NCBI GenBank assembly: GCA_030837305.1
Contig: JAUPKT010000317.1
Span: 1-12,354, forward strand
Length of the DNA: 12,354 nt
Direction of reading: 5' to 3'
Origin: Thermodesulfobacteriota bacterium
Lineage (GTDB): Bacteria; Desulfobacterota; Desulfomonilia; Desulfomonilales; Desulfomonilaceae
In this document: positions 1 through 12,067 of the stretch, one piece after another
Layout of the letters: each line of letters opens with the position of its first letter
Position numbering within the stretch: the stretch's first letter is position 1
Position numbers and translations under genes: made by a program
Notes under the pieces: model-generated
Databases searched by the model: none
What the model was told of the DNA's origin: nothing
What the model saw: only the letters and a program-made list of their open reading frames with translations

Positions 1-281
1 TCCTGCATAGCAGCTCAGCAATAATTCGATCCGGCCTCAACAACACTGCCAAGATTATACTTGAAAAAGACACGATTCAAATATGGACCGATTTTTGTGA
101 TCAATTTACCACAGGTTGCAAGCGACTGCAAACCGTTTGAGTGGGGCTATGTTGGCGATTTTTTCTGATAGATATCAGCGATTCGGGGACCGTGATAAGG
201 TCGGTCAAACTTTGTTCGCCACAGGAGTTATCTGGATATCTCAAAGAATCAGCACCACTGAAAATTTGAGATAACTGCCAT
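1..281 (+). repeat. Dispersed intergenic repeat, copy A
   Basis: Copy A matches copy D (9541-9824) over its whole length. Shared blocks in order are GCATAGCAG, CAACAACACTG, CTTGAAAAA, TTTACCACAGG, GACTGCAAACCGTTTGA, AAGGTCGGTCAA and TCTGGATAT. It may continue beyond the window edge. Its right end holds a perfect 9-bp inverted repeat (TATCTCAAA at 237-245, TTTGAGATA at 265-273) that the other copies lack in this form. No reading frame is shared between copies, so it looks noncoding. The right end points at the 3' end of the MFS gene, as in the other three copies. Function is unknown. Confidence 0.8.
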
Positions 282-639
282 TATGTTGCGAGTCGCCCTA
301 ACTTATTGAAAATCGATGGACAAATAGAATCCTGGCTAAGATTTGTAAGCGGATGAAATAGAAATAGAATTAGGTCGAAAAATATTTAGCATATCTATAA
401 TTCATTGGTTTAATAAAGTAAATAAAGCTAATACCATAACATCCTACGATATCAACCAGCCACATAATCTTCTGGCAATGGGTGATGCTGGCATTGACAA
501 CACAAATATAGCGGCTTGAAATTGATAATGCGACCTGCCACCAATGGGTGGGCAGATCAACTAGCTTCCGTAATTTTTCCCCTTGAGATAATCATTTTCA
601 AGACCCTTGTGAGGGCTGCAAACAAGATCCGTTTCTCAT
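282..639. other. AT-rich intergenic spacer without a gene
   Basis: This stretch lies between repeat A and the 3' end of the MFS gene. I see no supported coding region. The left two thirds are AT-rich. One feature stands out: a hairpin at 535-555, with arms CTGCCACC and GGTGGGCAG around a 4-nt loop and one bulged G. It lies about 85 nt beyond the MFS stop codon and could slow or end transcription, but no T-run follows it on either strand, so I do not call it an intrinsic terminator. Confidence 0.5.
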
Positions 640-1815
640 TCATTCTGGAGAATGTTGACCAGCGGTCAGCCCATAGATCATAAACCCAGCGAACAAGGCG
701 ACACCAGCGACCAAAAAGAGGATCTGGAAGCCGCCCCATTCCCCAAGATATCCTAAGATAATGGACCCGGAGAAAACCCCCGCATCAATTGCTCCCGTAA
801 ATATGCCGATGATTTTGCCCCGGATGCCCTTTGGCTCTCCTCGAAGAGCAAAGGCATTCATGGACGGAAAGAGAAGACCATGGCCGCATCCGGACATGAG
901 TCCCGACACTAGGAGGATGCTCTCCCTTCCCAAAGCCATAAGAACCAAAAAGCCGGTTCCCGTAATAATGAAAGCATATGGGATAATACGTTCCTCCCCA
1001 ACCCTGTCTGCAAGCCGTCCTCCGAAAAATCTTGTTATTGCCGCGGCCAAAGAGTAGGCCACGAAGTAAAGGGAGATAAACGGAATGTGCTTTTCTGCAG
1101 CATAGGGGGAGACAAAATTGCTAGAAGCGGCCAAGCCAAAGCCGAAAAGCAGGGCCAAGACCGCCACCAGCACCATCTTCTTTCTCGTCAGGACAGAGAA
1201 AAAGGACATCTCTGATCCGGTTACGCGGGTATCATACGAATCCCTCAAAGCGAAATGGAGACCGAACCCGACAAATGACATACCAGCCGCCAGGAGGAAA
1301 AAAAATTGAAAACCCAATTCTGCAATGACAACTTCTCCAATAACAGGGCCAATGGCCATTCCCACAAGCGCTGTTACTCCAAACATCCCAATCCCTTCGT
1401 TCAGGCGTTCTATGGGAACAATGTCTGCGATGTAGGTGAATCCGGCCGTGAAACAGATCGCCAATCCGATGCCATGTAGAAGCCTTACCAGAAAGAGGAG
1501 CAGATAGAATCCTGAAAGTTCCCCGCGAAACATGAGATAGCTAAGCGCCACGAGACCCGTTATCATGCATCCAATACCGTAGCTCCGTTTCCGCCCAATC
1601 TTGTCCACCATCTCAGAAATCCACGGACGGCAAATGACTGAAGAAAGAACGGTTGCCCCCATGACAATACCGATGTCTGCCTTTGATCCTCCGTGGCTCA
1701 TAATAAAGATAGGAAAGAGGAAAAAGCAGCCGAGGCTGGATACCGTAAAAAAATTGGCAGCGGCTAACAGGACAAATGAGGGGGTGTAAAGGGCTGGTTC
1801 AGGCTTTGATTCCAA
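640..1815 (-). CDS. MFS transporter, 12-TM, drug/H+ antiporter-like
   Basis: Inner-membrane carrier of the major facilitator superfamily, most likely a proton-driven exporter; the substrate cannot be told from sequence. The 391-residue length is normal for the family, and the hydrophobic pattern fits 12 helices with a central polar loop near residues 190-212. Motif A is visible in the helix 2-3 loop (SEMVDKIGRKR, about 67-77), with its half-repeat in loop 8-9 (GGRLADRVGEER, about 265-276). A motif C-like stretch in helix 5 (GMAIGPVIGE, about 152-161) is typical of antiporters rather than importers, which is why efflux is favoured. The start is doubtful: the frame opens with TTG directly after TAA, and no clear Shine-Dalgarno precedes it. 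In-frame ATGs come only after helix 1. It stands alone between repeats A and B. Confidence 0.92.
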   Translation of the reverse strand: MESKPEPALYTPSFVLLAAANFFTVSSLGCFFLFPIFIMSHGGSKADIGIVMGATVLSSVICRPWISEMVDKIGRKRSYGIGCMITGLVALSYLMFRGELSGFYLLLFLVRLLHGIGLAICFTAGFTYIADIVPIERLNEGIGMFGVTALVGMAIGPVIGEVVIAELGFQFFFLLAAGMSFVGFGLHFALRDSYDTRVTGSEMSFFSVLTRKKMVLVAVLALLFGFGLAASSNFVSPYAAEKHIPFISLYFVAYSLAAAITRFFGGRLADRVGEERIIPYAFIITGTGFLVLMALGRESILLVSGLMSGCGHGLLFPSMNAFALRGEPKGIRGKIIGIFTGAIDAGVFSGSIILGYLGEWGGFQILFLVAGVALFAGFMIYGLTAGQHSPE

Positions 1816-1839
1816 TTAGGTACCACACTTCAGATTCAT
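1816..1839 (-). promoter_or_regulatory. Possible 7-codon leader ORF abutting the MFS start
   Basis: Upstream of the MFS TTG, in the same frame, lies ATG (1839) followed by six codons and TAA (1816-1818): MNLKCGT*. A GAGG at 1850-1853 stands 10 nt before this ATG, while nothing like a Shine-Dalgarno precedes the TTG. Either a tiny leader peptide feeds translation to the TTG by termination-reinitiation, or the true start is this ATG and the TAA is a nonsense mutation or sequence error that breaks the gene at codon 8. The sequence alone does not decide between them. Confidence 0.3.
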
Positions 1840-1871
1840 CCGGGATTGACCTCTATGCTCTTCAAAACTTC

Positions 1872-2137
1872 GGCCTGCACATAAGGCGCAACTTAAATGA
1901 AACCCCAGTTTCATTAGCAGTTTACCACATACCGGAGGTGGCGACAAATGGAATGGGCTGCACACTTAATCGGCCCTATTCCCGAGAATCAACAGGGACA
2001 GATTGATCTTCATTTTCTGGCTATGATGAGCGACGGGGAGAGGCGTGGGAAGCCCGGTCAAGGCTTGTATTCCACAGGAGTTACCATCTGGATATCTCAC
2101 ACATTCAGAGCCATCAAAAAGCTGTGTTATCTGCCAT
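1872..2137 (+). repeat. Dispersed intergenic repeat, copy B
   Basis: Second member of the repeat family. The left half is diverged, with recognisable blocks such as GTTTACCACA near 1919. The right end, TCCACAGGAGTTA onward, matches copy A, and its last 56 nt (2082-2137) match copy C (5545-5600) with one mismatch. The left boundary is approximate. The right end lies only 44 nt from the 3' end of the delta-60 gene; the left end lies just upstream of the MFS gene. No shared coding frame was found. Confidence 0.82.
1896..1915. promoter_or_regulatory. Perfect 8-bp inverted repeat upstream of the MFS gene
   Basis: AATGAAAC and GTTTCATT form perfect arms around the 4-nt loop CCCA, about 80 nt upstream of the MFS TTG and 57 nt before the leader ATG. 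The matching part of copies A, C and D lacks it. It could be an operator or an RNA hairpin in the MFS leader. No flanking promoter good enough to call was seen. Confidence 0.4.
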
Positions 2138-2181
2138 AAAAACAGTTTATAACTTTATGATTTCAATATATTAGCTGGCAC

Positions 2182-3474
2182 TCACCTCAGCCTGAAGGTC
2201 AAGACATCATCATTCTCCCCACCATGGGAATAACCGGTAACCACAATTTTCCCGGCGGCCTGTATGGCAAGGCCGTTTGCCCGATCTTCACTTCTCGCGA
2301 GGCCGTCAAACGTAAAGACGCCATTATCCCCAAAGCCGGAGTCCAGAATCCCGTAAGGCGTGTACATCAGGACAATCGCATCGTCGCTGGATCCGTTGTT
2401 GCTGGCCCCGGCGACCACGATGCCGCCGTTTTTCTCTATAGCAACCCCGAAGGCATAGTCAAAAATCGAGGGAGATCCCTGGTAGGTGACCACGCCGCCG
2501 GTTCCGAATCCGCTATCAAGGCTGCCGTTCGACTCTAATCTCAGGATAAGAATTTTGAAGCTCTGGCCGTCATAGGCGGAACCGGCAGTCACGATTTTTC
2601 CATCTGCCTGGAGAGTCACAGAATTCCCATAATCTGAGTTGTCTCCAACGTAGCGATAGGTGAACGTACCATCTGTTCCGAAATCCGTGTCAAGAGAACC
2701 ATCCGTATGGAATCTCAGTACCAAAAGGTCCTCATTTTCCTGACCCGCAGCAATGTGGGAACCGGCAGCCACAATCTTACCATCACCCTGGACTGCTACT
2801 GAGAAACCCTTGTCGTTCTCATTCCCGGTCCCGTTATAGGTGACGATCCCACTGTCGCCAAAACTTGAATCAGGTTCCAAGTCGGAGGTCAACCGAATCA
2901 TGAGGATGTCCTGATTATCACCATTGGACCGTTCCCCTACGACGACGACCTTGCCGTCGGCCTGAACTGCCGCACCAAACCCAATATCTGTATATTCGCC
3001 TCCGCTTGAATAGGTGTAGACCCGATCCAGGTTCCCGTCTATACAATATCTCAAGACCAAGACATCCCTGTGCCTCTGATATCTGATATAGCCTACAACA
3101 ATAATGGTCCCATCCTGTGACAACGCCAGCCCGAGTCCCTTTTGGTCGAGTCCCCCGTCAAAAATAACATATCCGTCGGTTCCAAACAGATTGTCGAGGG
3201 TTCCCTCCTCATTATACCTCAGCAGCAGGACTGTGTTCTTACTACCGTCGTAACTATAGCCCATGACGACAATTTTGCCATCAGATTGAATGGCCGTCTC
3301 AACGCCCGTATCTTTGTCATTCAAGGGGTTGTTAAAAAGAGCAAAACCTTCTGGATTATTGAAGGTTATGTCGAGCATTCCCCAATAGGACGGATTTGTA
3401 TTGGACAAATTGTCATCGCTACACGAAACAAGTAACGGCAGTATTACGATCAAGGATAGGGCAATACGTTTCAT
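2182..3474 (-). CDS. Delta-60 repeat lipoprotein (predicted 7-bladed propeller)
   Basis: Secreted, lipid-anchored protein of 430 residues. The N-terminus MKRIALSLIVILPLLVSC is a lipoprotein signal with a lipobox ending at Cys18. The mature part is seven tandem repeats beginning near residues 34, 93, 149, 201, 261, 319 and 377. Each follows the pattern LDxxFGxxG ... A(I/V)QxDGKI(V/I)VxG ... DxLxLRxxxDG, which is the delta-60 repeat. Seven such units suggest a closed beta-propeller, probably for surface binding; no catalytic residues can be named. Repeat 3 is degenerate, with LDRVYTYSSGG replacing the FG(T/D)xG turn. Start: ATG with AAGAG about 7 nt upstream. It is separated from the recombinase by a MITE-like element, so an independent transcript is likely. 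Its ligand is unknown. Confidence 0.92.
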   Translation of the reverse strand: MKRIALSLIVILPLLVSCSDDNLSNTNPSYWGMLDITFNNPEGFALFNNPLNDKDTGVETAIQSDGKIVVMGYSYDGSKNTVLLLRYNEEGTLDNLFGTDGYVIFDGGLDQKGLGLALSQDGTIIVVGYIRYQRHRDVLVLRYCIDGNLDRVYTYSSGGEYTDIGFGAAVQADGKVVVVGERSNGDNQDILMIRLTSDLEPDSSFGDSGIVTYNGTGNENDKGFSVAVQGDGKIVAAGSHIAAGQENEDLLVLRFHTDGSLDTDFGTDGTFTYRYVGDNSDYGNSVTLQADGKIVTAGSAYDGQSFKILILRLESNGSLDSGFGTGGVVTYQGSPSIFDYAFGVAIEKNGGIVVAGASNNGSSDDAIVLMYTPYGILDSGFGDNGVFTFDGLARSEDRANGLAIQAAGKIVVTGYSHGGENDDVLTFRLR

Positions 3475-3502
3475 ATGTGACTCTTCGTGAAAATAGTTTC
3501 AT

Positions 3503-3742
3503 CGTAAGCGTTCACAGGTTCCGGGTTTCGGTTTTCAGGTTGTAGGCAAAAGGCGCAATGACGACGTTCGTCATAAGACAAAGAGGCATCTTCCTGGGAT
3601 CCTTGGTCTGTTCCATGATCGATATTTTGCTTGAACATGCGAACGGAAAGCGGATCGTCTCCTATAGATCTCCAAAATGCGATCCGAGGCAGCGAAAAAT
3701 AACCCTGAACCTATGAACCCCTGAACCGCGTGAACGGTTACG
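3503..3742. mobile_element. Putative MITE with imperfect terminal inverted repeats
   Basis: The left end reads CGTAAGCGTTCACAGGTTC. The right end, read on the minus strand, begins CGTAACCGTTCACGCGGTTC, so the two are imperfect terminal inverted repeats of about 20 nt. They continue into irregular GGTTC/GTTCA iterations on both sides (3518-3540 and 3704-3728). The roughly 240-bp element holds no supported gene and fills most of the gap between the recombinase and the delta-60 gene. I see no convincing target duplication. It could instead be a paired GGTTC-rich dispersed repeat rather than a transposed unit. Confidence 0.5.
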
Positions 3743-3748
3743 TCAGCA

Positions 3749-3788
3749 GGGTGAAGACCGTCCCGGCCTCCACCCCGTCCTGAATAGG
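3749..3788 (+). repeat. 40-nt palindromic repeat, copy 1 (possible recombination core)
   Basis: It matches 9895-9934 at 36 of 40 positions in the same orientation. The first 27 nt form an imperfect inverted repeat: left arm GGGTGAAGACC, right arm GGCCTCCACCC, centre GTCCC. The last base abuts the stop codon of the tyrosine recombinase (3789-3791). Inside the 27 nt the two copies differ only in the centre, as expected for a recombinase core with conserved arms. No T-run follows on the minus strand, so it is not an ordinary intrinsic terminator. Confidence 0.7.
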
Positions 3789-4626
3789 TTACGCATAGAT
3801 GTTTTCGATCCACCTCATGGCCTCGGTATCAGGCACCTTTCCAAGGTAAATCTGTGTCGTTGACAGGTTCGCGTGCCGTAAGATGACCTTGCTCACAATC
3901 TCGATGGGCACACCTGAGCGGCTCGCATATGTTCCGGCGTGCCGTCTCAGATCATGGGGCCTGAGCCGAATCCCCACCCTGTCGCCTGCCTTCTTGACCA
4001 TTGTCCTGGCGGCTTCGTAAGATATGGGGAAGATCCTTTGGTCCGGCTGAATTCCATTTTCCCTGATGTATTCTTTGAGCCTGTCAGCCACTTTCTGTGG
4101 GATAAAGACATGCTCCCGCTCTTTGCCACTTTTCGGGTCCCGAAGGGTTAGTTTCCGCTCATTAACATCCATGGGCCTCAGCTTTAAGACCTCACCCACC
4201 CTCATTCCGCCTCGGGCCATCAGTTCGAGCATGAGACGGTTCCTCAGTTTGGGCGTTGTAAAGATGATTTCGTCAATGACGTCTTTTTCGATGATCTCCC
4301 ATGAGACGATGGGTCTGGACCGGAACATTTTCCTCATCATTGGGTTGTCGCAGGGATTGCGGAAATCGATATTGATGTTGGCTCTGATGAAGTTGAAGAA
4401 GGCTGAGAGGTGGGCATATTTGATGCGCTTGGTCTGTTGTTTCCTTCCTTCGGTAATTCCGTTCAGGAATTCCAGTATCTCGTCTGTGGTGATGGTTTCG
4501 ATGCTCCTTTCTCCAAAATCCTGATTGAACCTGAAGAGGAGCGCCTCGTATGACTTAACCGTATTTTTTTTGTGAATTGAACCTGTGGTACTCCAGCCAT
4601 AGTTTTCCCGCTTCTTTGATTTCCAT
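3789..4626 (-). pseudogene. Tyrosine recombinase/integrase, broken by +1 frameshift
   Basis: Phage-integrase family tyrosine recombinase of about 278 residues, XerC/D-like in size. Translation starts at ATG 4626 behind a strong AAGGAGG (4634-4640). The frame runs MEIKEAGKLWLEYHRFNSQKK and stops at 4555-4557. Dropping one A from the A8 run at 4564-4571 gives ...NSQKNTVKSYEALLFRF and one unbroken frame to 3789. Residues 1-95 are then the SAM-like core-binding domain, and 96-278 the catalytic domain with all signature residues: Arg142 (GGMR), Lys165 or 168, His224 and Arg227 (HDLRR), His251 and nucleophile Tyr260 (TTQIYLG). As written, only 3789-4340 (183 residues, catalytic part) is an ATG-started frame. 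It lies 98 nt downstream of hicB and touches the 40-nt repeat at its 3' end. It may be a fresh pseudogene, a sequencing error, or expressed by slippage on A8. Confidence 0.88.
4564..4571 (-). other. A8 run: frameshift or slippage site in the recombinase
   Basis: On the coding strand this is CAAAAAAAAT. Eight A keep the start frame, which ends seven codons later. Seven A would join the conserved N-terminus to the catalytic domain without loss or gain of residues. Runs of eight or more A are known sites of polymerase and ribosome slippage, and also of sequencing error. Confidence 0.75.
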
Positions 4627-4724
4627 CTTTCGTCCTCCTTGTCTTGGGTTTAATAATATCGCTCCAAAAGGAATCTAAAAAATATCCGATCTACGTATTC
4701 TGTGACGGACACATTCAAGCCCTT

Positions 4725-5054
4725 TCACCTGGACAGCTTAGCACTGACAAGCCGGTTTAAGCTTACACGTTCTTCAGCCGCTTGGATGGATAGTTCACGA
4801 TGAACTTGCGGCGGTATCCGAACAGAAAACTTGCCACTGAATTTCCTTTCGGATAAAGGCGATGGGATCGCGTCGCCATCGGTCTCCATGATTTTTATTC
4901 CCTCTGCAACGACCCGGCGAATACCTTTCAGCGCCGCCTCTGGAGTTCCAGCCAGCCAACTGAGTGTCGGGAACTCAGCACAAAGACCGACATACGCCTG
5001 ATCACTATTTGACCATATCACCCGATAAGCATATCTATCATTTTTTAAGGTCAT
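4725..5054 (-). CDS. hicB: HicB-family antitoxin
   Basis: Antitoxin of a type II toxin-antitoxin pair; it binds and blocks the HicA ribonuclease and represses its own operon. The 109-residue protein has the expected two parts. Residues about 8-58 are the HicB partial RNase H-like fold (YRVIWSNSDQAYVGLCAEFP ... GTPEAALKGIRRVV), and residues about 74-107 are a ribbon-helix-helix DNA-binding segment (SGKFSVRIPPQVHREL ... SLNRLVSAKL). Its ATG overlaps the hicA stop codon by 4 nt (ATGA), the usual sign of coupled translation, and GGAGG stands 6 nt before it. The order toxin then antitoxin is common for hicAB. The recombinase follows 98 nt downstream and may share the transcript. Confidence 0.9.
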   Translation of the reverse strand: MTLKNDRYAYRVIWSNSDQAYVGLCAEFPTLSWLAGTPEAALKGIRRVVAEGIKIMETDGDAIPSPLSERKFSGKFSVRIPPQVHRELSIQAAEERVSLNRLVSAKLSR

Positions 5055-5299
5055 TTTTCGTCCTCCAATTCCTCAATAGCACCCAAGACTTGTCTTACCT
5101 GATATTCTTTGGCCTTACCTTTGAAATTCTGGATGTTTATTAGCGGAGGGGTAATCCAGGGTACTTTGAATATTCTATGGCTTGAGCTTTTTTGTCTTGG
5201 CTCACCAAAATAATGTTCGCAGACTTTGCATGCATCTCCAAATTTTATATTGGACGGGCTGCGCCTCATCTTCTCCAATATTTTGTCGATGTTTGTCAT
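5051..5299 (-). CDS. hicA: HicA-family mRNA interferase toxin
   Basis: Small toxin of the hicAB pair, predicted to cleave mRNA and slow growth when free of HicB. The 82 residues match the longer HicA form: MTNIDKILEKM ... FGDACKVCEHYFGE ... SSSHRIFKVP ... LINIQ ... KGKAKEYQVRQVL. The catalytic histidine is probably His41 (SSSHRIF), and the C-terminal KGKAKxYQVRQ signature is clear. The frame is open farther upstream to 5380, but those codons cover the promoter and repeat C and look unlike HicA, so ATG 5299 is chosen. No Shine-Dalgarno precedes this ATG, and the predicted transcript would begin at or next to it, so translation may be leaderless. Cys23 and Cys26 in CKVC are unusual but not diagnostic. 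Confidence 0.87.
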   Translation of the reverse strand: MTNIDKILEKMRRSPSNIKFGDACKVCEHYFGEPRQKSSSHRIFKVPWITPPLINIQNFKGKAKEYQVRQVLGAIEELEDEK

Positions 5300-5306
5300 A
5301 AATAGT

Positions 5307-5334
5307 ATGATACCACTATTGGTGTCAGTGTCAA
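5307..5334 (-). promoter_or_regulatory. hicAB promoter, sigma70-like, with overlapping palindrome
   Basis: The -35 TTGACA (5329-5334) is a perfect consensus. After a 16-nt spacer comes -10 TATCAT (5307-5312), five of six. The expected start of transcription falls at about 5299-5300, on the A of the hicA ATG. The palindrome GTATcATAC covers the -10 and would suit binding by the HicB ribbon-helix-helix domain. The -35 lies about 15 nt outside the left edge of repeat C. Confidence 0.7.
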
Positions 5335-5349
5335 GACAGAAATCTAAGC

Positions 5350-5600
5350 CAACATCAGCAACACTGGAAAACCTCCACATGAAACGGCATGATTCAAATA
5401 TGGGAAAGTTCTGCGACCAATTCCTCGCGAGGTGCGGGCGGCTGCAAAATATTGATTGCCGCGATGCAAATCCACTTTTGACCAGTAAGGTCGATTGGAA
5501 GGGTCAACATGGTAAGAAGGACCAACCTGCGCCTGCTCCAAAACTACCATCTGGATATGTCACACATTCAGAGCCATCAAAAAGCTGTGTTATCTGCCAT
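5350..5600 (+). repeat. Dispersed intergenic repeat, copy C
   Basis: Third copy. The left part matches copy D at CAACACTGGAAAACCT and copy A at GATTCAAATATGG. The right 56 nt (5545-5600) match copy B with one mismatch and copy D at 48 positions. The middle is diverged. It separates the kinase 3' end (251 nt away) from the hicAB promoter. No shared coding frame was found. Confidence 0.82.
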
Positions 5601-5851
5601 CGATCTCAGGCTTTCGATGCTACAATATATCGTAATATCGGTTAGATACGTAGTTATGTGATAATGGATGATAATGGCGGGCTTGGGGGCAATCGCTCTT
5701 TTACCTTAAACAGAAGAGTTGGTCTTGAAGGCAGCGGAAAAGGCAACACTTCCAGAACAATAGTTCACATCTCGATGGTTCAATACAGGACAGCCAGGCT
5801 GACAAGACAAATCTAGGAAATCTCGCATTAGGCCGGACGCTCGAAAAACCA

Positions 5852-8800
5852 TCATTTATCAAGTTCCTCCTTAACAGCGAGGCCGATCTTCTCCAGGGTA
5901 TAAGGCTTCTTGATATACTTTCCCGCCCCCAATCTCTGAGCTATTTTAACATCCTCTGTCTCCGAAAACCCACTGGCAATAATCGCCTTTTGGCCGGGAC
6001 GGATCTTTATGATCTCTTCATAGGTCTTCCGACCATTGATCCCTTTCGGCATTACCATATCCAGAACGATCAGATCCACGGGTTTTTCTTTCACATATTC
6101 TATTCCCTCTTCTCCGCTTGATACCGATTCGGCAGTGTAGCCAAGCCTGGTCAGCATCCCGCTTGCAATCTCCCTTTGCCTATGCTCATCATCCAGTATT
6201 AAGATCTTCTCTCCATGTCCCAGGTAATCTTCAATCTCAACCTCTTCCTTCACAGCGGCGGCTTCTTCTCGGGTAATAGAGAAGTATAGCTCAAATACGG
6301 TTCCCTTCTCACTTGTTCTTACATTTATGTATCCATTGTGGTCTTGAACGGTATTCCATACGACGGCAAGGCCCAGTCCTGTGCCGACCCTTCCCATGAT
6401 CTTCTTGGTATAGAATGGCTCGAAGATCCTCTCAAGGTCCTCATGACTAATTCCTGTACCATCGTCCGATACACTGAGGACCGCATATTCACCTATTCTT
6501 ACATCCTCATATCCCTTCAGCGGCTCATCCAGATATCGGTTCATCGTGGATATGGTGACTGTACCGATCCCCTCTATCGCCTCTGAGGCGTTGGTGACCA
6601 GGTTCATCAGGCTTTTTTTGATATGGACCGGGGAACAACTGATATTCAACAGCTCGGACTCAAGCACTGTTTCAAAGGCAATGGAAGGGTGCGTGATTTC
6701 CAATTTTTTGTGTTCGGGTGAACTCAAGTATTCTTTCACCAGGGAATTCAGGTTTGAGACCCTTCTATCACTGGCTATACCCCTCGCTATCGTCAGCAGG
6801 TCTGAGACCACATCGGCAGCCCTCTGGCCGGATTCCTTTATCACCTCAATCGGTTCTCTAATTGGACTATCTTTGGGTAAGTCCAGCAAAAGCAAATCAG
6901 GATATCCTACAATCCCCGAAAGGATGTTGTTAAGGTCATGGGCAACACCCCCTGCCAGGAGTCCAATGGTCTCCATCTTTCTTGCCTGTTGAAGCTGTGC
7001 CTCAAGTCTTGTCCTTTCCTTTTCGGCCTGTTTGCGCTCGGTAATGTCTTGATTCGCGCCGTAAGTCTTGACCGTACGACCTTGATCATCTTTGACGATG
7101 AAGAAGCGGACGGATAGGTACCCGATCTCGCCGTCGGCATAGATCATGCGGTGTTCGAACTGGCGGCTGTAATTTGGATTGGTGGTTTCGAGGGCTTTCT
7201 GAATCTCCAAACCGACTACCGCCATATCGTCAGGATGTACGAAAAGCTGGGCGTAATGAGCAGACGACATCTTATAGCCGCCAACTTTTTCAGCCGACGT
7301 ACGGAAAATGGCGTAGAAATGATCGTTGAAGATAAACAGGTCGTTGGCTACGTCATACTCCCAATACCCAAGCTGAGCAATATTCATGGCATTGGATAGT
7401 TGAGCTTCGCTGGTACGCAACGCCTCCTCCGCCCGCGTCCGCTCGGTGATATCATGTGCTATACCGCGGAACCCGATTGGCTGGCCCGCCTGGTCTTTCA
7501 TCAGGGAAGCAAACAATTCATGAAAGCCGCGACTTCCATCCTTTCTAATGATTTCGTGGGTCACTTTTTTAATGGGGTTTCCTGTCCTGTAGATTTGACT
7601 AAAGAGGGTATGGATTTTCTTGGCGGATTCCGGAGACATATAGTCACGGTTATTCATTCCCATCAACTCATCATCGGAATACCCAAGGCTCTTAGATAAT
7701 GAATCATTGAAGAAAGTAAAGTTGCCTGCAATATCAACCTCAAAGTATATCTCTTCGATGCTGTCAAGGAGAGTTCTGTATTTCTCCTCGCTCTTCTGTA
7801 GTGACTCTTCCGCCTGCTTGCGATCGGTGATGTCCTGGCCGGTCCCAAATACACTCAACACATCTCCGATCTGATCTTTCTCTATTTTCCCGATACACTG
7901 CACGAAACGTTCTTCACCATTCGGTCTGATGATTCTATATTCAATATCATAGGGAAAACCATCTTTCATCGCTTTGCTAAATGTCTCTCCTGCGAATTTT
8001 TTGTCATCCGGGTGAATCATGCCGATCGCATAATCAAGGCTCACCTTGGTTTCTTCAGGGTCCAAGCCATAAATTCTGAATAGTTCGTCGGACCAGTACA
8101 GTTCCCCGGTTTCGACATGGTATTTCCAACTGCCGATGTGGGCAACCTCCTGGGCCATCGAAAGGTTCTCTTGGCTTTCCCCAAGAGCTGTTTCAGCCTT
8201 CTTGATGACTGTGATATCTTGCGCCGTGCCAAACAGCTTGGTCACATTTCCCTCTTCGTCCGTTGAAGTTGTTCCAATAGCATTCATCCAACCCAACTCC
8301 CCATCCGGTTTCACAATCCTGAAAACAAGATCGAAAGGAGTCCCATCCATACCGGCCCTCCTGACAGCCTCGTCCAATATGGGCCAATCCTCCGGATGAA
8401 GATGTGCCTCATGGTCAGCAAATGACGGTTCTCCCTCATCCGGATCAAGTCCGAATATGCGGAATATTTCGTCGGACCATACCGGCGTTCCGATGTCCGG
8501 TCCCAGTTCCCAGTGGCCTACGTGAGCGACCCTCTGGGCTTCTTTAAGGAGTGCCTCGCTCTTCCGAAGTGCCTCCTCCATCTGCTTGTGTGAGATGATC
8601 TCGCTGGCAAGCGCTCGGTTATTGATCCCGTACTCCGAAAGGCGACGTGCAATAACTGCTAAAAGTTCCAGGGCATTTTCCAACTCCTCAAGAGGACGGC
8701 TTTTCATCTTGTCGTAGGCGGCAAGGAGTTCCTGCTCGTCTGCACCGATTTCCAGTGCACATTGTCTTACTCTTTTTTCATCCACTTCCGGCGGGCATAA

Positions 8801-9307
8801 CTGTCCAACGAGCCACGACGCCACGTGCCTTTCCCCGATGTGTACGGGAACCACAGCATCGATAAAGCCGATATTGGAGCAGCGTGTTATGACCGGGTGC
8901 ACGGACTTCTGTGCCTTTTTAGCCAGTACGGTGTCATTTGCCTTGCAGCGCTTCAAGCCCTTCTCAGTGCAGCGCACTATCTGGCAAAATTCACATAAGT
9001 TGGTTGGCCCGGTGATGTATTCACCGTTGGCATCCGTCAGGAGTAAACACACGTCGAAAGCATCGGCAAACGCCTCGTTTAATTCTTTGAGAGTTTCGAT
9101 TCCCACGAGATCCGTGGCTTCCAGGTCGGCCAAGCTCTTTCCGGGAGAACCCACAGTTTCCACTCTATTTTCAAGGATGCGTTTTATCTCCCGAAGTTTC
9201 TTCTCGCCCTGCCTCAGGTCCTCCTCGGGCTTTTTCCGCTCTGCCTCAGCTTTCTCCAATTCCTTTACCCTTTTTTCCAATTCTTCATAGGTTGGCTTTT
9301 TGGCCAT
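5852..9307 (-). CDS. PocR/multi-PAS hybrid sensor histidine kinase with receiver
   Basis: Signal-transducing hybrid kinase of 1151 residues with no membrane segment or signal peptide, so a cytosolic sensor. Domains in order: charged coiled coil (2-50); PocR-type ligand domain (about 67-225) with cysteines 105, 108, 113, 121 and 143; four PAS/PAC units (about 250-370, 378-495, 505-622, 633-757), each ending in a G(T/I/A)xxDIT motif; dimerisation domain with phospho-acceptor His790 (VAHDLNN); ATPase domain with N-box NLVTNASEAI (about 902), DDGTGI (948), FEPFYTKK (962) and GTGLGLAVV (975). The C-terminal receiver (1034-1150) has acidic residues 1039-1040, phospho-acceptor Asp1083 and Lys1134. 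Start: the frame opens at TTG 9322, but ATG 9307 begins the conserved MAKKPTYEELE and has GGGGGA about 8 nt upstream. No DNA-binding output domain, and no partner gene in the window. The ligand is unknown. Confidence 0.96.
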   Translation of the reverse strand: MAKKPTYEELEKRVKELEKAEAERKKPEEDLRQGEKKLREIKRILENRVETVGSPGKSLADLEATDLVGIETLKELNEAFADAFDVCLLLTDANGEYITGPTNLCEFCQIVRCTEKGLKRCKANDTVLAKKAQKSVHPVITRCSNIGFIDAVVPVHIGERHVASWLVGQLCPPEVDEKRVRQCALEIGADEQELLAAYDKMKSRPLEELENALELLAVIARRLSEYGINNRALASEIISHKQMEEALRKSEALLKEAQRVAHVGHWELGPDIGTPVWSDEIFRIFGLDPDEGEPSFADHEAHLHPEDWPILDEAVRRAGMDGTPFDLVFRIVKPDGELGWMNAIGTTSTDEEGNVTKLFGTAQDITVIKKAETALGESQENLSMAQEVAHIGSWKYHVETGELYWSDELFRIYGLDPEETKVSLDYAIGMIHPDDKKFAGETFSKAMKDGFPYDIEYRIIRPNGEERFVQCIGKIEKDQIGDVLSVFGTGQDITDRKQAEESLQKSEEKYRTLLDSIEEIYFEVDIAGNFTFFNDSLSKSLGYSDDELMGMNNRDYMSPESAKKIHTLFSQIYRTGNPIKKVTHEIIRKDGSRGFHELFASLMKDQAGQPIGFRGIAHDITERTRAEEALRTSEAQLSNAMNIAQLGYWEYDVANDLFIFNDHFYAIFRTSAEKVGGYKMSSAHYAQLFVHPDDMAVVGLEIQKALETTNPNYSRQFEHRMIYADGEIGYLSVRFFIVKDDQGRTVKTYGANQDITERKQAEKERTRLEAQLQQARKMETIGLLAGGVAHDLNNILSGIVGYPDLLLLDLPKDSPIREPIEVIKESGQRAADVVSDLLTIARGIASDRRVSNLNSLVKEYLSSPEHKKLEITHPSIAFETVLESELLNISCSPVHIKKSLMNLVTNASEAIEGIGTVTISTMNRYLDEPLKGYEDVRIGEYAVLSVSDDGTGISHEDLERIFEPFYTKKIMGRVGTGLGLAVVWNTVQDHNGYINVRTSEKGTVFELYFSITREEAAAVKEEVEIEDYLGHGEKILILDDEHRQREIASGMLTRLGYTAESVSSGEEGIEYVKEKPVDLIVLDMVMPKGINGRKTYEEIIKIRPGQKAIIASGFSETEDVKIAQRLGAGKYIKKPYTLEKIGLAVKEELDK

Positions 9308-9540
9308 CAGAAAATCCCCCAAATATCCTCAAAATGAAAAAGCCCATACCCCATTGCGTCTTAGACACGGTGTATGAGCCTTTACAAGCGTCATTAGTCC
9401 CCCAATCCTTATTTGGATCGTGCTTTGAAGAGGAAGAGGTTTGTTCTCATCGCAATAGGGTTTTATGCCAAATCACCATGATTTGCACTCAAAATCTGCA
9501 ACCTTGGTCAGGGCCTATCGATTCATGTTTTCTTGCATTT

Positions 9541-9824
9541 GTCTTGCATAGCAGGTCAGCCGAAATTCCGACCGCACCCAACAACACTGGAAAACCTATC
9601 CTTGAAAAATACACAAGTCAAATATGAGGCGATTCCAAAGCCAGTTTACCACAGGGTCCAGGGGACTGCAAACCGTTTGATTGGAACGATCTCAATGGCT
9701 TTTTCTGATCAATATGCGAGATGGGGGGAGTCGCGGTAAGGTCGGTCAAGCTTCATGTGCCACGGAAGTACCATCTGGATATGTCAAAAATTCAGCTCCC
9801 CCCGAAAGCTGTGTTATCTGCCAT
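9541..9824 (+). repeat. Dispersed intergenic repeat, copy D
   Basis: Full-length partner of copy A, sharing blocks from TTGCATAGCAG to the TCTGGATAT end. Its final 56 nt (9769-9824) match copy C at 48 positions; the changes cluster in the middle, where six C in a row appear. It lies 236 nt upstream of the kinase start and 203 nt past the 3' end of the beta-helix gene. A short inverted repeat (CAGCG-att-CGCTG, 9831-9843) follows its right end. Confidence 0.83.
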
Positions 9825-9894
9825 TGAGCGCAGCGATTCGCTGATAAAATAGTATGTAACACCAATTGGATATATCCCTAACACAGGTTTGATA

Positions 9895-9934
9895 GGGTGA
9901 AGACCTTTCCGGCCTCCACCCCGTTCTGATTAGG
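9895..9934 (+). repeat. 40-nt palindromic repeat, copy 2
   Basis: Same orientation as copy 1 and 36 of 40 identical. The arms GGGTGAAGACC and GGCCTCCACCC are unchanged, while the centre is TTTCC instead of GTCCC. The other two differences lie in the tail (CCCGTTCTGATTAGG here). It sits 93 nt past the stop codon of the beta-helix gene. With copy 1 it brackets about 6.1 kb holding the recombinase, hicAB and the kinase. No recombinase gene is next to this copy. Confidence 0.7.
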
Positions 9935-10027: not shown

Positions 10028-12067
10028 TTACTGCCTTCCTGCGGATTCCAGTATCCATGCCGGCACTTCACCGCTGGTGGATACCTTCACATTATTTATA
10101 AAGGTCATGTTGGTCGGGGCATTGGGGTAATAACTGTTCGTGCAAATATCATAAAAATCCAAATGATCCCGCAGGTAGTTATTTTCAAAGAGCAAATCCC
10201 CGTAAGGAACACAACCTCCCATGTCTGCCCCATAAGGCACGATGCCCGTCGTCAGGCAGAGATCTTCAAAGGATGAGGCCTTCAAACAGGGTCCGAAATC
10301 TACAAAACCCTGTGGATTATCCAAAGAGACATTTTGGCTCACCGTCACGAAACGGCTGCCGCCGTCGGTATAGAAGGTGTTGCCCCCTGCAAGCCGTCGT
10401 TTATCTATCGCTACATTCCAGGCGATCAACTGGCCGTTTTCCATGGAAGTCCCTTGAAAGCCCGTGGTATAAATGGCACCGCCATCCCATAATTTTTCTA
10501 AAAAATATTGGATCTTGTTGTGGATGATCTTATTCCCCTGTGCCGCCGAAGGCGTGCCGATGTAACCCCACTCGTAAGGTCTTGCGTGGGGTAGTCCTGC
10601 AAAGCCCCCCGGATCGAGCAGGCCCCAACCCCAGCCGATGGCAATTCCGGCCCATGGGACATGACGGATCTCATTGTGTTCGACAAGGCTGCGGGTGGTA
10701 AAACCGATAAAGATCCCGGGGGCGTCGTAGAACTCCTGCCCTGAATACTCTATGAGGTTGTTGGCGATGTGATTGTCGCTCGTCAGTTGGGAGGGATGTT
10801 CGGGATGATGATCTTCGGCTGCAATACCGCCGACCTGAATGGCGGCTGCGGAAATATCATTGAAGGTGTTGTTGACAATCTCGTTGTTTTGGCTGCCGGT
10901 TCCGAAGTTCAATGCAATCGCCCCCATATGCGCAAACACATTGTCTTCGAATGTAATGTTCTGCGCATAGACAAAACTCAAATTGCCAGGAATTCCAACG
11001 GCATCAGGATCGTGTCCGATCGTGTTGGCTGTATGGTTAGGCCCAACCAGGTAAAAGCCACTTTGATCGAGGGCATAACCATCGGAGCTGTTCGGTGCAA
11101 GCCAGGTGGCATACATGAAGCTCAAACCCTTAAAGCGTATGAAGCTCACAGGTTGTGAAACATCACCGCCGGCATCCACTAATTTCTCAAGAACAGGCAG
11201 CTCCACGTCCGCGCTGCTCATATCTTCTCCCTCGCGGGGAATGTAATAAACGGTCTGTGTGCCCGGGTTCAGATACCACTCACCGGCTTCATCCAGAAAC
11301 TCATAGGCATTTTCCCACCAGCTGAGGAGATGGAAGTTCCACGGAGAGGGGAACACATTGGCATTGTCCCAGCAATGTTTTTCCATAATCACTTCACTGT
11401 TATTCCTGATTTCAGCGACAGGGCAACGCATCATTTTCCACTGTGTTACGGTTACGGCCTCGACGTCAATTGGGTTATCCCAGGTAGGCGGGATCTGCGG
11501 ATCGGAACCGAAAATATACTCGTAAGTGTATCCCGCGGAAGTGGGGGTGTAATAATTGGGATAGTCCGGCGTGCGAGCTCGAGTGGCGCGCTGACCATTG
11601 ACATATAGTTGTCGCGGCATGGTGCCGGTATTCACTTGCGCTCGCCAGATGTTAAAACCGGCGTCGTGCAGAGTCCAGCCGCTCACTTGTTGAGCACTCG
11701 AGATCACGACGATTTCTCCGGGAGCGGCCTGATAAATCACCTCCGCATCGGGAGCGCCGGAGTCTCCGCCATTTAACATCAGTGGACCGCTGAGCCGATA
11801 AGTGCCTCCTCTTATGTTAACGTTTATGGTGTAAATTCCTCGATCGTGATTTGCACGGATCACATCGCGGGCGTGCTCGATAGTCTGAAAGGGATTATCC
11901 GACTCACCACTGGCCTGGTCGCTTCCATTCGTCGCCACCCAGTAGTTTATGGTGCGGGTTTCCGAAGGACAAGTATCCGAAGAACAGGCGGGGATAAAAA
12001 ACAACAGCAAAGCCACGGTCAGAAATTTGAAGGAGCGATAAGATGGACGTTGATTGTTCAAAGTCAT
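10028..12067 (-). CDS. Right-handed parallel beta-helix lipoprotein, GH141-like
   Basis: Lipid-anchored exported protein of 679 residues, probably a polysaccharide-active enzyme. The signal RSFKFLTVALLLFFIPAC ends in a lipobox Cys28. Residues 42-130 carry the usual entry to this fold (YWVATNGSDQASG ... NPFQTIEHARDVIR ... INVNIRGGTYRL). The rungs follow from about 310 to 660 with repeated N-rich turns (ITFEDNVF, NNEIVNNTF, DNHIANNLIEYSG, GNKIIHNKI, DLLFENNYL). Motifs RARTPDYP (163), GIAIGWGWG (474), DGGAIYT (528) and FYTDGGSR (565) recall beta-helix glycosidases related to GH141; I infer that the aspartates of the last two are catalytic. The substrate is not known. Start: ATG 12067 with GGAGG only 3 nt upstream, a tight spacing. 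Transcribed alone from a promoter 90 nt upstream; repeat D and the 40-nt repeat lie beyond its 3' end. Confidence 0.92.
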   Translation of the reverse strand: MTLNNQRPSYRSFKFLTVALLLFFIPACSSDTCPSETRTINYWVATNGSDQASGESDNPFQTIEHARDVIRANHDRGIYTINVNIRGGTYRLSGPLMLNGGDSGAPDAEVIYQAAPGEIVVISSAQQVSGWTLHDAGFNIWRAQVNTGTMPRQLYVNGQRATRARTPDYPNYYTPTSAGYTYEYIFGSDPQIPPTWDNPIDVEAVTVTQWKMMRCPVAEIRNNSEVIMEKHCWDNANVFPSPWNFHLLSWWENAYEFLDEAGEWYLNPGTQTVYYIPREGEDMSSADVELPVLEKLVDAGGDVSQPVSFIRFKGLSFMYATWLAPNSSDGYALDQSGFYLVGPNHTANTIGHDPDAVGIPGNLSFVYAQNITFEDNVFAHMGAIALNFGTGSQNNEIVNNTFNDISAAAIQVGGIAAEDHHPEHPSQLTSDNHIANNLIEYSGQEFYDAPGIFIGFTTRSLVEHNEIRHVPWAGIAIGWGWGLLDPGGFAGLPHARPYEWGYIGTPSAAQGNKIIHNKIQYFLEKLWDGGAIYTTGFQGTSMENGQLIAWNVAIDKRRLAGGNTFYTDGGSRFVTVSQNVSLDNPQGFVDFGPCLKASSFEDLCLTTGIVPYGADMGGCVPYGDLLFENNYLRDHLDFYDICTNSYYPNAPTNMTFINNVKVSTSGEVPAWILESAGRQ

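What the first reader, a model, noticed from the sequence alone, without database searches (positions are those of the whole stretch)
1..9824. Same-strand genes punctuated by four co-oriented copies of an unknown repeat
Copies A, B, C and D (about 250-290 bp) all have one orientation and sit between transcription units whose genes are all on the minus strand. In each, the best conserved end faces the 3' end of a gene. The result is a gene(s)+repeat layout like a cassette array, with one to four genes per module and unrelated functions. Repeats and orientation are seen directly; that modules move or are exchanged is inference. I could not fit integron attC consensus ends to the repeat.
Basis: partly seen in the sequence, partly recalled or inferred. 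Interest (0 to 1): 0.72.

Follow-up and report, generated by a model that had tools for sequence, protein, structure and literature searches.

The report
Gene-cassette array with non-integron recombinase
In several uncultured Desulfobacterota bacteria, unrelated genes are strung together between copies of one short DNA site that always points the same way, and comparison of related species suggests the genes are shuffled at that site by an enzyme that is not the integron enzyme.

Summary
The repeat is real: four same-orientation copies lie in the window, and their 56-nt core recurs in other Desulfobacterota genomes. A core model finds 44 cores (E<=1e-4, as printed) in nine genomes. They cluster (13 of 13 in G398 lie on 4 of ~460 contigs), and all 12 contigs with two or more cores have them in one orientation (2^-19 if random). 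The core's CTGCCAT end faces a gene's 3' end in 29 of 37 scorable cases. Between two sister species, homologous modules have different neighbours, and 3 of 8 block ends lie within 56 bp of a core in both. The array-linked recombinase is a 278-aa simple, Xer-like tyrosine recombinase; in 3 of 8 loci with its C-terminus in core-bearing genomes a core follows ~100-112 bp after its gene. Integron tests fail: 0 of 41 cores carry an attC-like pair, the inverted repeat does not covary, the recombinase scores far below the IntI cut-off, and true IntIs lie only on other contigs. Best reading: an integron-like cassette array using another recombinase and its own site. Movement, recombinase assignment and crossover point are inferred from fragmented assemblies, not shown.

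The parts
1..225 (+). Copy A, left arm (type 1), cut by the contig start
   Evidence: Aligns with the left arm of D (72% over 288 bp) and at 86% over 393 bp, core and right flank included, with G398 contig C19
226..281 (+). Core A
   Evidence: 56-nt core
1890..2081 (+). Copy B, left arm (type 2; left end approximate)
   Evidence: Aligns with left arms of G427 and G410 copies
2082..2137 (+). Core B (98% identical to core C; flanks not)
5340..5544 (+). Copy C, left arm (diverged type 1; left end approximate)
5545..5600 (+). Core C
5634..5648 (+). Right-arm dyad S (AATATC-GGTTA-GATA) 33 nt right of core C
   Evidence: ATATC-N4-6-GATA in 16 of 41 right flanks, 0 of 41 left flanks, shuffle mean 0.08
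9529..9768 (+). Copy D, left arm (type 1)
   Evidence: Left end at about 240 bp from the core in most type-1 alignments
9769..9824 (+). Core D
9858..9872 (+). Degenerate right-arm dyad of D (not counted among the 16)
   Evidence: Read by eye /
9894..9934 (-). Integrase-type 3' hairpin element without an integrase: relic
   Evidence: 90% identical to 3748-3788; window 9676-9934 aligns at 73% with core + right arm + hairpin next to the integrase in L154
3748..3788 (-). Hairpin directly after the integrase stop codon
   Evidence: hairpin in 18 of 22 distinct integrase loci, 0.95 of 22 expected
3789..4626 (-). Tyrosine recombinase (278-aa family); reading frame split at an A8 run (4564-4571)
   Evidence: PF00589; 91% identical over 183 aa to the core-adjacent integrase of G427/G201; frames
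640..1815 (-). Cargo: MFS transporter
   Evidence: PF07690
2182..3474 (-). Cargo: delta-60-repeat (beta-propeller) lipoprotein-like protein
   Evidence: TIGR02608 / PF17164
4725..5054 (-). Cargo: HicB-family protein
   Evidence: PF05534
5051..5299 (-). Cargo: small partner of the HicB-family gene (HicA-like by recall; no Pfam or NCBIfam hit)
5852..9322 (-). Cargo: PocR/PAS hybrid histidine kinase
10028..12067 (-). Cargo: beta-helix / GH141-like protein
   Evidence: PF21231 just above its cut-off

Best explanation
The window is a piece of a gene-cassette-like array. Each module is one to several genes, followed in gene orientation by a right arm (often with a small dyad S) and a 56-nt core; a ~240-bp or longer left arm then leads to the next module. 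Cores in one array are direct repeats. A simple, two-domain tyrosine recombinase of the Xer/XerA type, itself carried in the arrays, most likely recombines core sites and so excises, inserts and reorders modules, much as IntI does with attC, but with another enzyme and another, bipartite site used as double-stranded DNA. Shown: repeats, clustering, co-orientation, polarity to genes, different neighbours of homologous modules in sister species, several junctions at cores, recombinase gene next to cores, no integron hallmarks. Inferred: that the recombinase acts on these sites, the exact crossover point, circular intermediates, and present-day activity.
For: 44 cores at E<=1e-4 in 9 genomes; 31 of them on 12 contigs, all co-oriented within a contig. 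In G398 13 of 13 cores lie on 4 of ~460 contigs. Core orientation stays uniform where gene orientation does not (e.g. L147, L148). Right side faces a gene 3' end 29 of 37, left side a 5' end 31 of 35. G398 versus G308 (same genus): 3 of 8 block ends within 56 bp of a core in both genomes (binomial on the fetched loci 0.002 and 0.0004). In one (P2) identity is 80-100% along the left arm, 73-80% in the core and 33-67% beyond it. Recombinase: catalytic R, K, HxxR, H and Y motifs align with solved XerA 4a8e; core ~100-112 bp after its gene in L150, L151, L154. Four window modules carry unrelated cargo. Left arm + core + right flank of copy A recur at 86% in G398 beside another gene.
Against: No excision, circle or within-species polymorphism seen. 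5 of 8 block ends are 326-2124 bp from a core, so other rearrangements occur; one (G308, DUF362) fuses into a truncated gene. The identity steps of P1 and P6 fall roughly 30 and 50-120 bp to the right of the core, not inside it, so no single crossover point emerges. Integrase copies are often split or broken. The best-populated genome, G398, has only a relic of the recombinase. In 5 of 8 integrase loci with a C-terminus in core-bearing genomes (window, L157, L187, L200, L208) no modelled core follows within ~110 bp. All multi-core contigs come from fragmented assemblies. 13 of the 44 cores are alone on their contig.
Confidence: 0.57

Rival explanations
1. A chromosomal integron or CALIN with unusual attC sites, run in trans by IntI.
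For: Layout, co-orientation and 3'-end polarity match cassette arrays. Three of the eight searched core-bearing genomes (G308, G400, G429) do carry an IntI above the cut-off.
Against: 0 of 41 cores +-60 nt carry an RYYYAAC..GTTRRRY pair. No covariation in the inverted repeat: 79.4% paired, 79.2% in shuffles. Of 11 core + strands folded as single-stranded DNA, only copy A is far below its shuffles (z -2.9); two more are near -1.9. No IntI over the cut-off in 5 of 8 genomes, including G398 with 13 cores, and none on a core contig.
Confidence: 0.08
2. A miniature transposable element (left arm + core, about 300 bp) that inserts between genes in a preferred orientation; the genes themselves do not move.
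For: The left-arm + core unit has a fairly constant length (left ends at 236-247 bp from the core in most type-1 pairs). Single cores occur alone on contigs (13 of 44). Some cores lack the right arm.
Against: Clustering on few contigs and uniform orientation within each of 12. Core orientation is kept even where gene orientation changes. Homologous gene modules lie next to different copies in sister species. No transposase is tied to the repeat; the linked enzyme is a site-specific recombinase. No empty site or target duplication was found, but few pairs could be tested.
Confidence: 0.2
3. A functional transcription element (terminator, leader RNA or promoter region) multiplied between operons of one genome region; mosaicism from homologous recombination between copies.
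For: Strong polarity to genes; lies between transcription units; long conserved left arm just upstream of genes.
Against: No Rfam match; no covariation; a terminator-like site in 1 of 4 window cores and 6 found in the window against 13.1 expected; promoter-like sites not in excess (13 against 13.9). 70-75% identical copies of a few hundred bases are poor substrates for homologous recombination (established knowledge).
Confidence: 0.1

Closest known systems
Integron cassette arrays (IntI + attC/attI)
   Same: Co-oriented repeats after gene 3' ends, varied cargo, module shuffling, a tyrosine recombinase gene in the arrays.
   Different: Recombinase lacks a match to the IntI-specific part of TIGR02249 and scores 36-60 bits against a cut-off of 265; no attC consensus or folding signal; multi-gene modules of up to ~10 kb; core lies 3' of the recombinase gene; true IntIs of the same genomes lie elsewhere.
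dif (pdif) modules of Acinetobacter plasmids, XerC/XerD
   Same: Gene modules, often toxin-antitoxin, bounded by Xer-type recombination sites and shuffled (PMC13141974, abstract seen).
   Different: Those have C and D modules, Xer enzymes of the host and a plasmid setting. Here all cores in a contig share one orientation, the site is 56 nt with half-sites ~21 nt apart plus arms, the recombinase is a separate family carried in the array, and its protein had no hit in 72,556 plasmid records.
XerA-type simple tyrosine recombinases
   Same: Nearest solved structure 4a8e (E 2e-16) and best NCBIfam match NF040815.
   Different: Below the NF040815 cut-off (137 against 220 bits); multi-copy, array-linked, more than 4,500 homologs in a metagenome-rich database.

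Membership tests
Integron | IntI with the IntI-specific additional domain | tested here: not met
   P0002 matches TIGR02249 only at positions 15-181 of 315, 60.1 bits against 265; window copy 39.1 bits. In 8 genomes, 7 IntI hits over the cut-off, none on a core contig
Integron | attC sites with RYYYAAC / GTTRRRY boxes (consensus recalled) | tested here: not met
   0 of 41 cores +-60 nt; shuffled mean only 0.39, so this is evidence against attC rather than depletion
Integron | attC recognised as a folded single strand | tested here: not met
   No covariation, weak single-strand folds in most of 11 cores; HattCI/IntegronFinder not available
Integron | Array of co-oriented sites | tested here: met
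   12 of 12 contigs with two or more cores
Integron | attI site beside intI where cassettes enter | tested here: inconclusive
   Core ~100-112 bp after the recombinase gene in 3 of 8 loci; no directional entry shown
Integron | Cassettes are exchanged by the integrase | not testable with these tools
   Only comparative junctions
dif modules | 28-bp XerC/XerD site with a 6-bp spacer, C and D modules (details recalled; module types in PMC13141974 abstract) | tested here: not met
   Core arms are separated by 21 nt and all cores in a contig share one orientation. Dyad S has a 5-nt spacer but occurs in 16 of 41
MITE / dispersed repeat | Scattered place and orientation | tested here: not met
   Clustering and co-orientation; 13 of 44 cores alone on a contig
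MITE / dispersed repeat | Target-site duplication at empty sites | not tested
   No pair of filled and empty sites with alignable flanks on both sides was found
Tyrosine recombinase family | Catalytic R-K-H-R-H-Y set | tested here: met
   PF00589; motifs align with XerA 4a8e (read by eye)

The most novel reading that the evidence does not exclude
A gene-capture system parallel to integrons, spread in Desulfobacterota: its own simple Xer-like recombinase family (thousands of homologs), its own bipartite core + S site with long arms, and multi-gene modules, with recombinase output possibly set by slippage at a conserved A8-A9 run that splits its reading frame.
Probability: 0.35. Interest if true: 0.85.

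Novelty: new variant of a known kind. Interest (0 to 1): 0.7.

Why it matters
If right, cassette-style collection and shuffling of genes evolved with a recombinase other than IntI, and with whole operons as cargo. The system would be missed by integron software, which looks for attC and IntI. It would help to explain gene mosaicism in environmental Desulfobacterota, and the core model makes it testable in long-read genomes.

Tried and rejected
Rfam search of the window: 0 matches. Structure-based RNA reading: rejected, no covariation. Terminator or promoter reading: no excess. First DNA search of relatives with one copy: three 23-31-bp hits in other genomes, judged chance. Pattern scan of genome contigs: 58 stretches, of which 10 loci (12 cores) judged true by eye from sequence and spacing, 48 chance. 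Viral pattern scan: 15 stretches, none judged true. Plasmid and phage searches with the integrase: no match at 1e-20. tRNA att-site idea: the last 18 nt of tRNA-Leu, -Arg and -SeC are not duplicated in the nine G398 loci checked. Direct repeats around the G402 integrase: two families, neither core-like. Enolase of contig C272 as a test of binning: names mixed, not decisive. My note that the integrase needs a -1 frameshift was wrong; one search shows one extra A, catalytic frame offset +1.

Literature: searches gave no description of this array. Seen: passages of PMC8138268 and PMC9668308, abstract and outline of PMC13141974; all other papers only as search listings. The library lacks most subscription papers and all preprints.
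Full report
OBSERVATION. The four repeats reported exist, all on the + strand between minus-strand genes. Their most conserved part is a 56-nt core at 226-281, 2082-2137, 5545-5600 and 9769-9824. A degenerate pattern made from them matches 4 times in the window and never in 200 shuffles. The copies are mosaic: A and D resemble each other over 288 bp; B and C are 98% identical only over the core; C resembles a further copy on contig C272 to the right of the core. The window is the whole contig C43 of an assembly of 576 contigs.

SPREAD. One scan of genome contigs with the pattern returned 58 stretches. By sequence and spacing I judged 10 loci (12 cores) to be true, all in metagenome-assembled genomes titled Thermodesulfobacteriota, Desulfobacteraceae, Deltaproteobacteria or Desulfobacterales; the other 48 look like chance. 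Seventeen cores gave a sequence-only model, R1. With it, 3 of 395 relatives of the window genome (G000 itself, G308, G398) and 8 of 148 relatives of G308 (G308 included) have hits at E<=1e-3. A further search of 247 relatives of G199 found 8, the same genomes under other handles judging by coordinates. These large searches use stricter filters. None of the 17 same-family genomes listed for the window had one. So the cores occur mainly in another family, f50, of the same phylum. The window assembly has 5.2% estimated contamination, and an enolase search did not settle where contig C272 belongs, so I do not claim transfer between distant lineages.

ARRAYS. At E<=1e-4 as printed there are 44 cores: G000 6, G398 13, G308 9, G410 9, G400 2, G427 2, G435 1, G429 1, G414 1. 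Thirty-one lie on 12 contigs with two or more, and within each of the 12 all point the same way (2^-19 if orientation were free). In G398 the 13 lie on 4 of about 460 contigs. Thirteen cores are alone on a contig. Weaker hits (E between 1e-4 and 0.01) in G398/G198 and G000 are also singletons and were left out of the counts. Orientation of the core is kept where gene orientation is not: in G398 contig C99 two plus-strand genes lie inside an array of minus-strand genes, and the cores there still agree.

POLARITY. For 41 cores in the fetched loci, with crude ORFs of at least 120 aa, the CTGCCAT side faces a gene 3' end in 29 of 37 scorable cases and the other side a gene 5' end in 31 of 35.

SITE ANATOMY. 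The core has an inverted repeat, GATATCTCAA .. 21 nt .. TTGAGATATC, but its pairing does not covary: 79.4% of cells pair, 79.2% after shuffling. Single-stranded folds of the core + strands are mostly no better than shuffles, copy A being the exception. It therefore reads as a double-stranded protein-binding dyad. About 33 nt to the right, 16 of 41 copies carry a second dyad, ATATC-N4-6-GATA (0 of 41 on the left; 0.08 expected). On the left lies an arm of about 240 bp (type 1) or a different, longer arm (type 2).

RECOMBINASE. The integrase gene inside module B-C belongs to a 278-aa family with more than 4,500 homologs at E<=1e-20 (4,967 candidates scored). It is a simple tyrosine recombinase; nearest solved relative XerA 4a8e, best curated match NF040815, below its cut-off. 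In 18 of 22 distinct loci a hairpin follows the stop codon within 62 nt (0.95 expected from pieces further downstream). In L150 and L151 (G308) and L154 (G427) a core lies 101-112 bp after the gene. In five other loci with the C-terminus in core-bearing genomes (window, L157, L187, L200, L208) no modelled core follows at that distance. In the window the hairpin is followed by the delta-60-repeat gene and then core B. A hairpin of the same kind without an integrase lies right of core D (9894-9934), so D looks like the 3' flank of a lost integrase copy. G398, with most cores, has only an integrase relic.

MODULE SHUFFLING. G398 and G308 belong to one genus. Four homologous blocks of at least 250 bp, repeat-only matches aside, were found between their array loci. 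Three of the eight block ends lie within 56 bp of a core in both genomes (P = 0.002 and 0.0004 on the fetched loci); the other five are 326-2124 bp away. The clearest case (P2) shows 80-100% identity along the left arm, 73-80% in the core and 33-67% beyond it. In P1 the step is about 30 bp right of the core, and in P6 identity falls over the last ~120 bp before it. The DUF362-like module (name recalled) lies after one core in G398 but after a different core and a truncated gene in G308. G410 and G435 share a gene module at 93% whose distance to the core is 439 and 227 bp. Left arm, core and right flank of window copy A recur at 86% over 393 bp in G398 beside another gene. In G398 an array follows tRNA-Leu(gag); in G308 and the core-free G399 the same tRNA is followed by an ABC/MlaD-like operon (name recalled), which in G398 lies on another contig, C277, and runs to that contig's end. 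This fits insertion at that spot, but the far junction is not assembled.

NOT AN INTEGRON. See the membership test: the IntI profile is not met, attC boxes are absent (0 of 41), there is no folding signal, and no IntI over the cut-off lies on a core contig. IntIs do exist elsewhere in 3 of 8 of these genomes.

JUDGEMENT. Best explanation 0.57: a cassette-like array maintained by a non-IntI tyrosine recombinase. What it works like: an integron or dif-module system. What it is a member of: neither. Movement itself is inferred.

Noticed in passing
window 4564-4571; L154, L157, L188, L190, L192, L201: Seven of ten integrase loci examined have an A8-A9 run about 18 codons in; in 6 of these 7 the catalytic domain is in another frame than the start codon (one extra A). 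A conserved slippage or phase-variation switch is possible; decay at a homopolymer is the plain rival (L201 is interrupted elsewhere too).
   Followed up: partly
window 4725-5299: HicB-family gene with an overlapping small partner (toxin-antitoxin-like) directly upstream of the split integrase; the partner has no Pfam or NCBIfam hit.
   Followed up: no
L241 and L242 (G465, single-contig genome): Related integrases followed by a hairpin and a shared motif (AGCAG-A/T-AAGCTAATCCTCA) that may be another core type; in L241 the sequence beyond is masked.
   Followed up: partly
L144 13288-13374 (G398 C19), L146 2323-2399 (G398 C23), L246 2934-3031 (G398 C450): Two G398 core contigs and the contig with an integrase relic carry a tRNA gene (Leu, Arg, SeC) close by.
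   Followed up: partly
L011 2478-3758 (G000 C272): An enolase gene lies beside a core; its best database relatives are a mixed set of names.
   Followed up: partly
L046 3908-4912: A protein that looks like a REP-associated (RAYT/IS200-type) transposase, by eye only, on a contig with a core.
   Followed up: no
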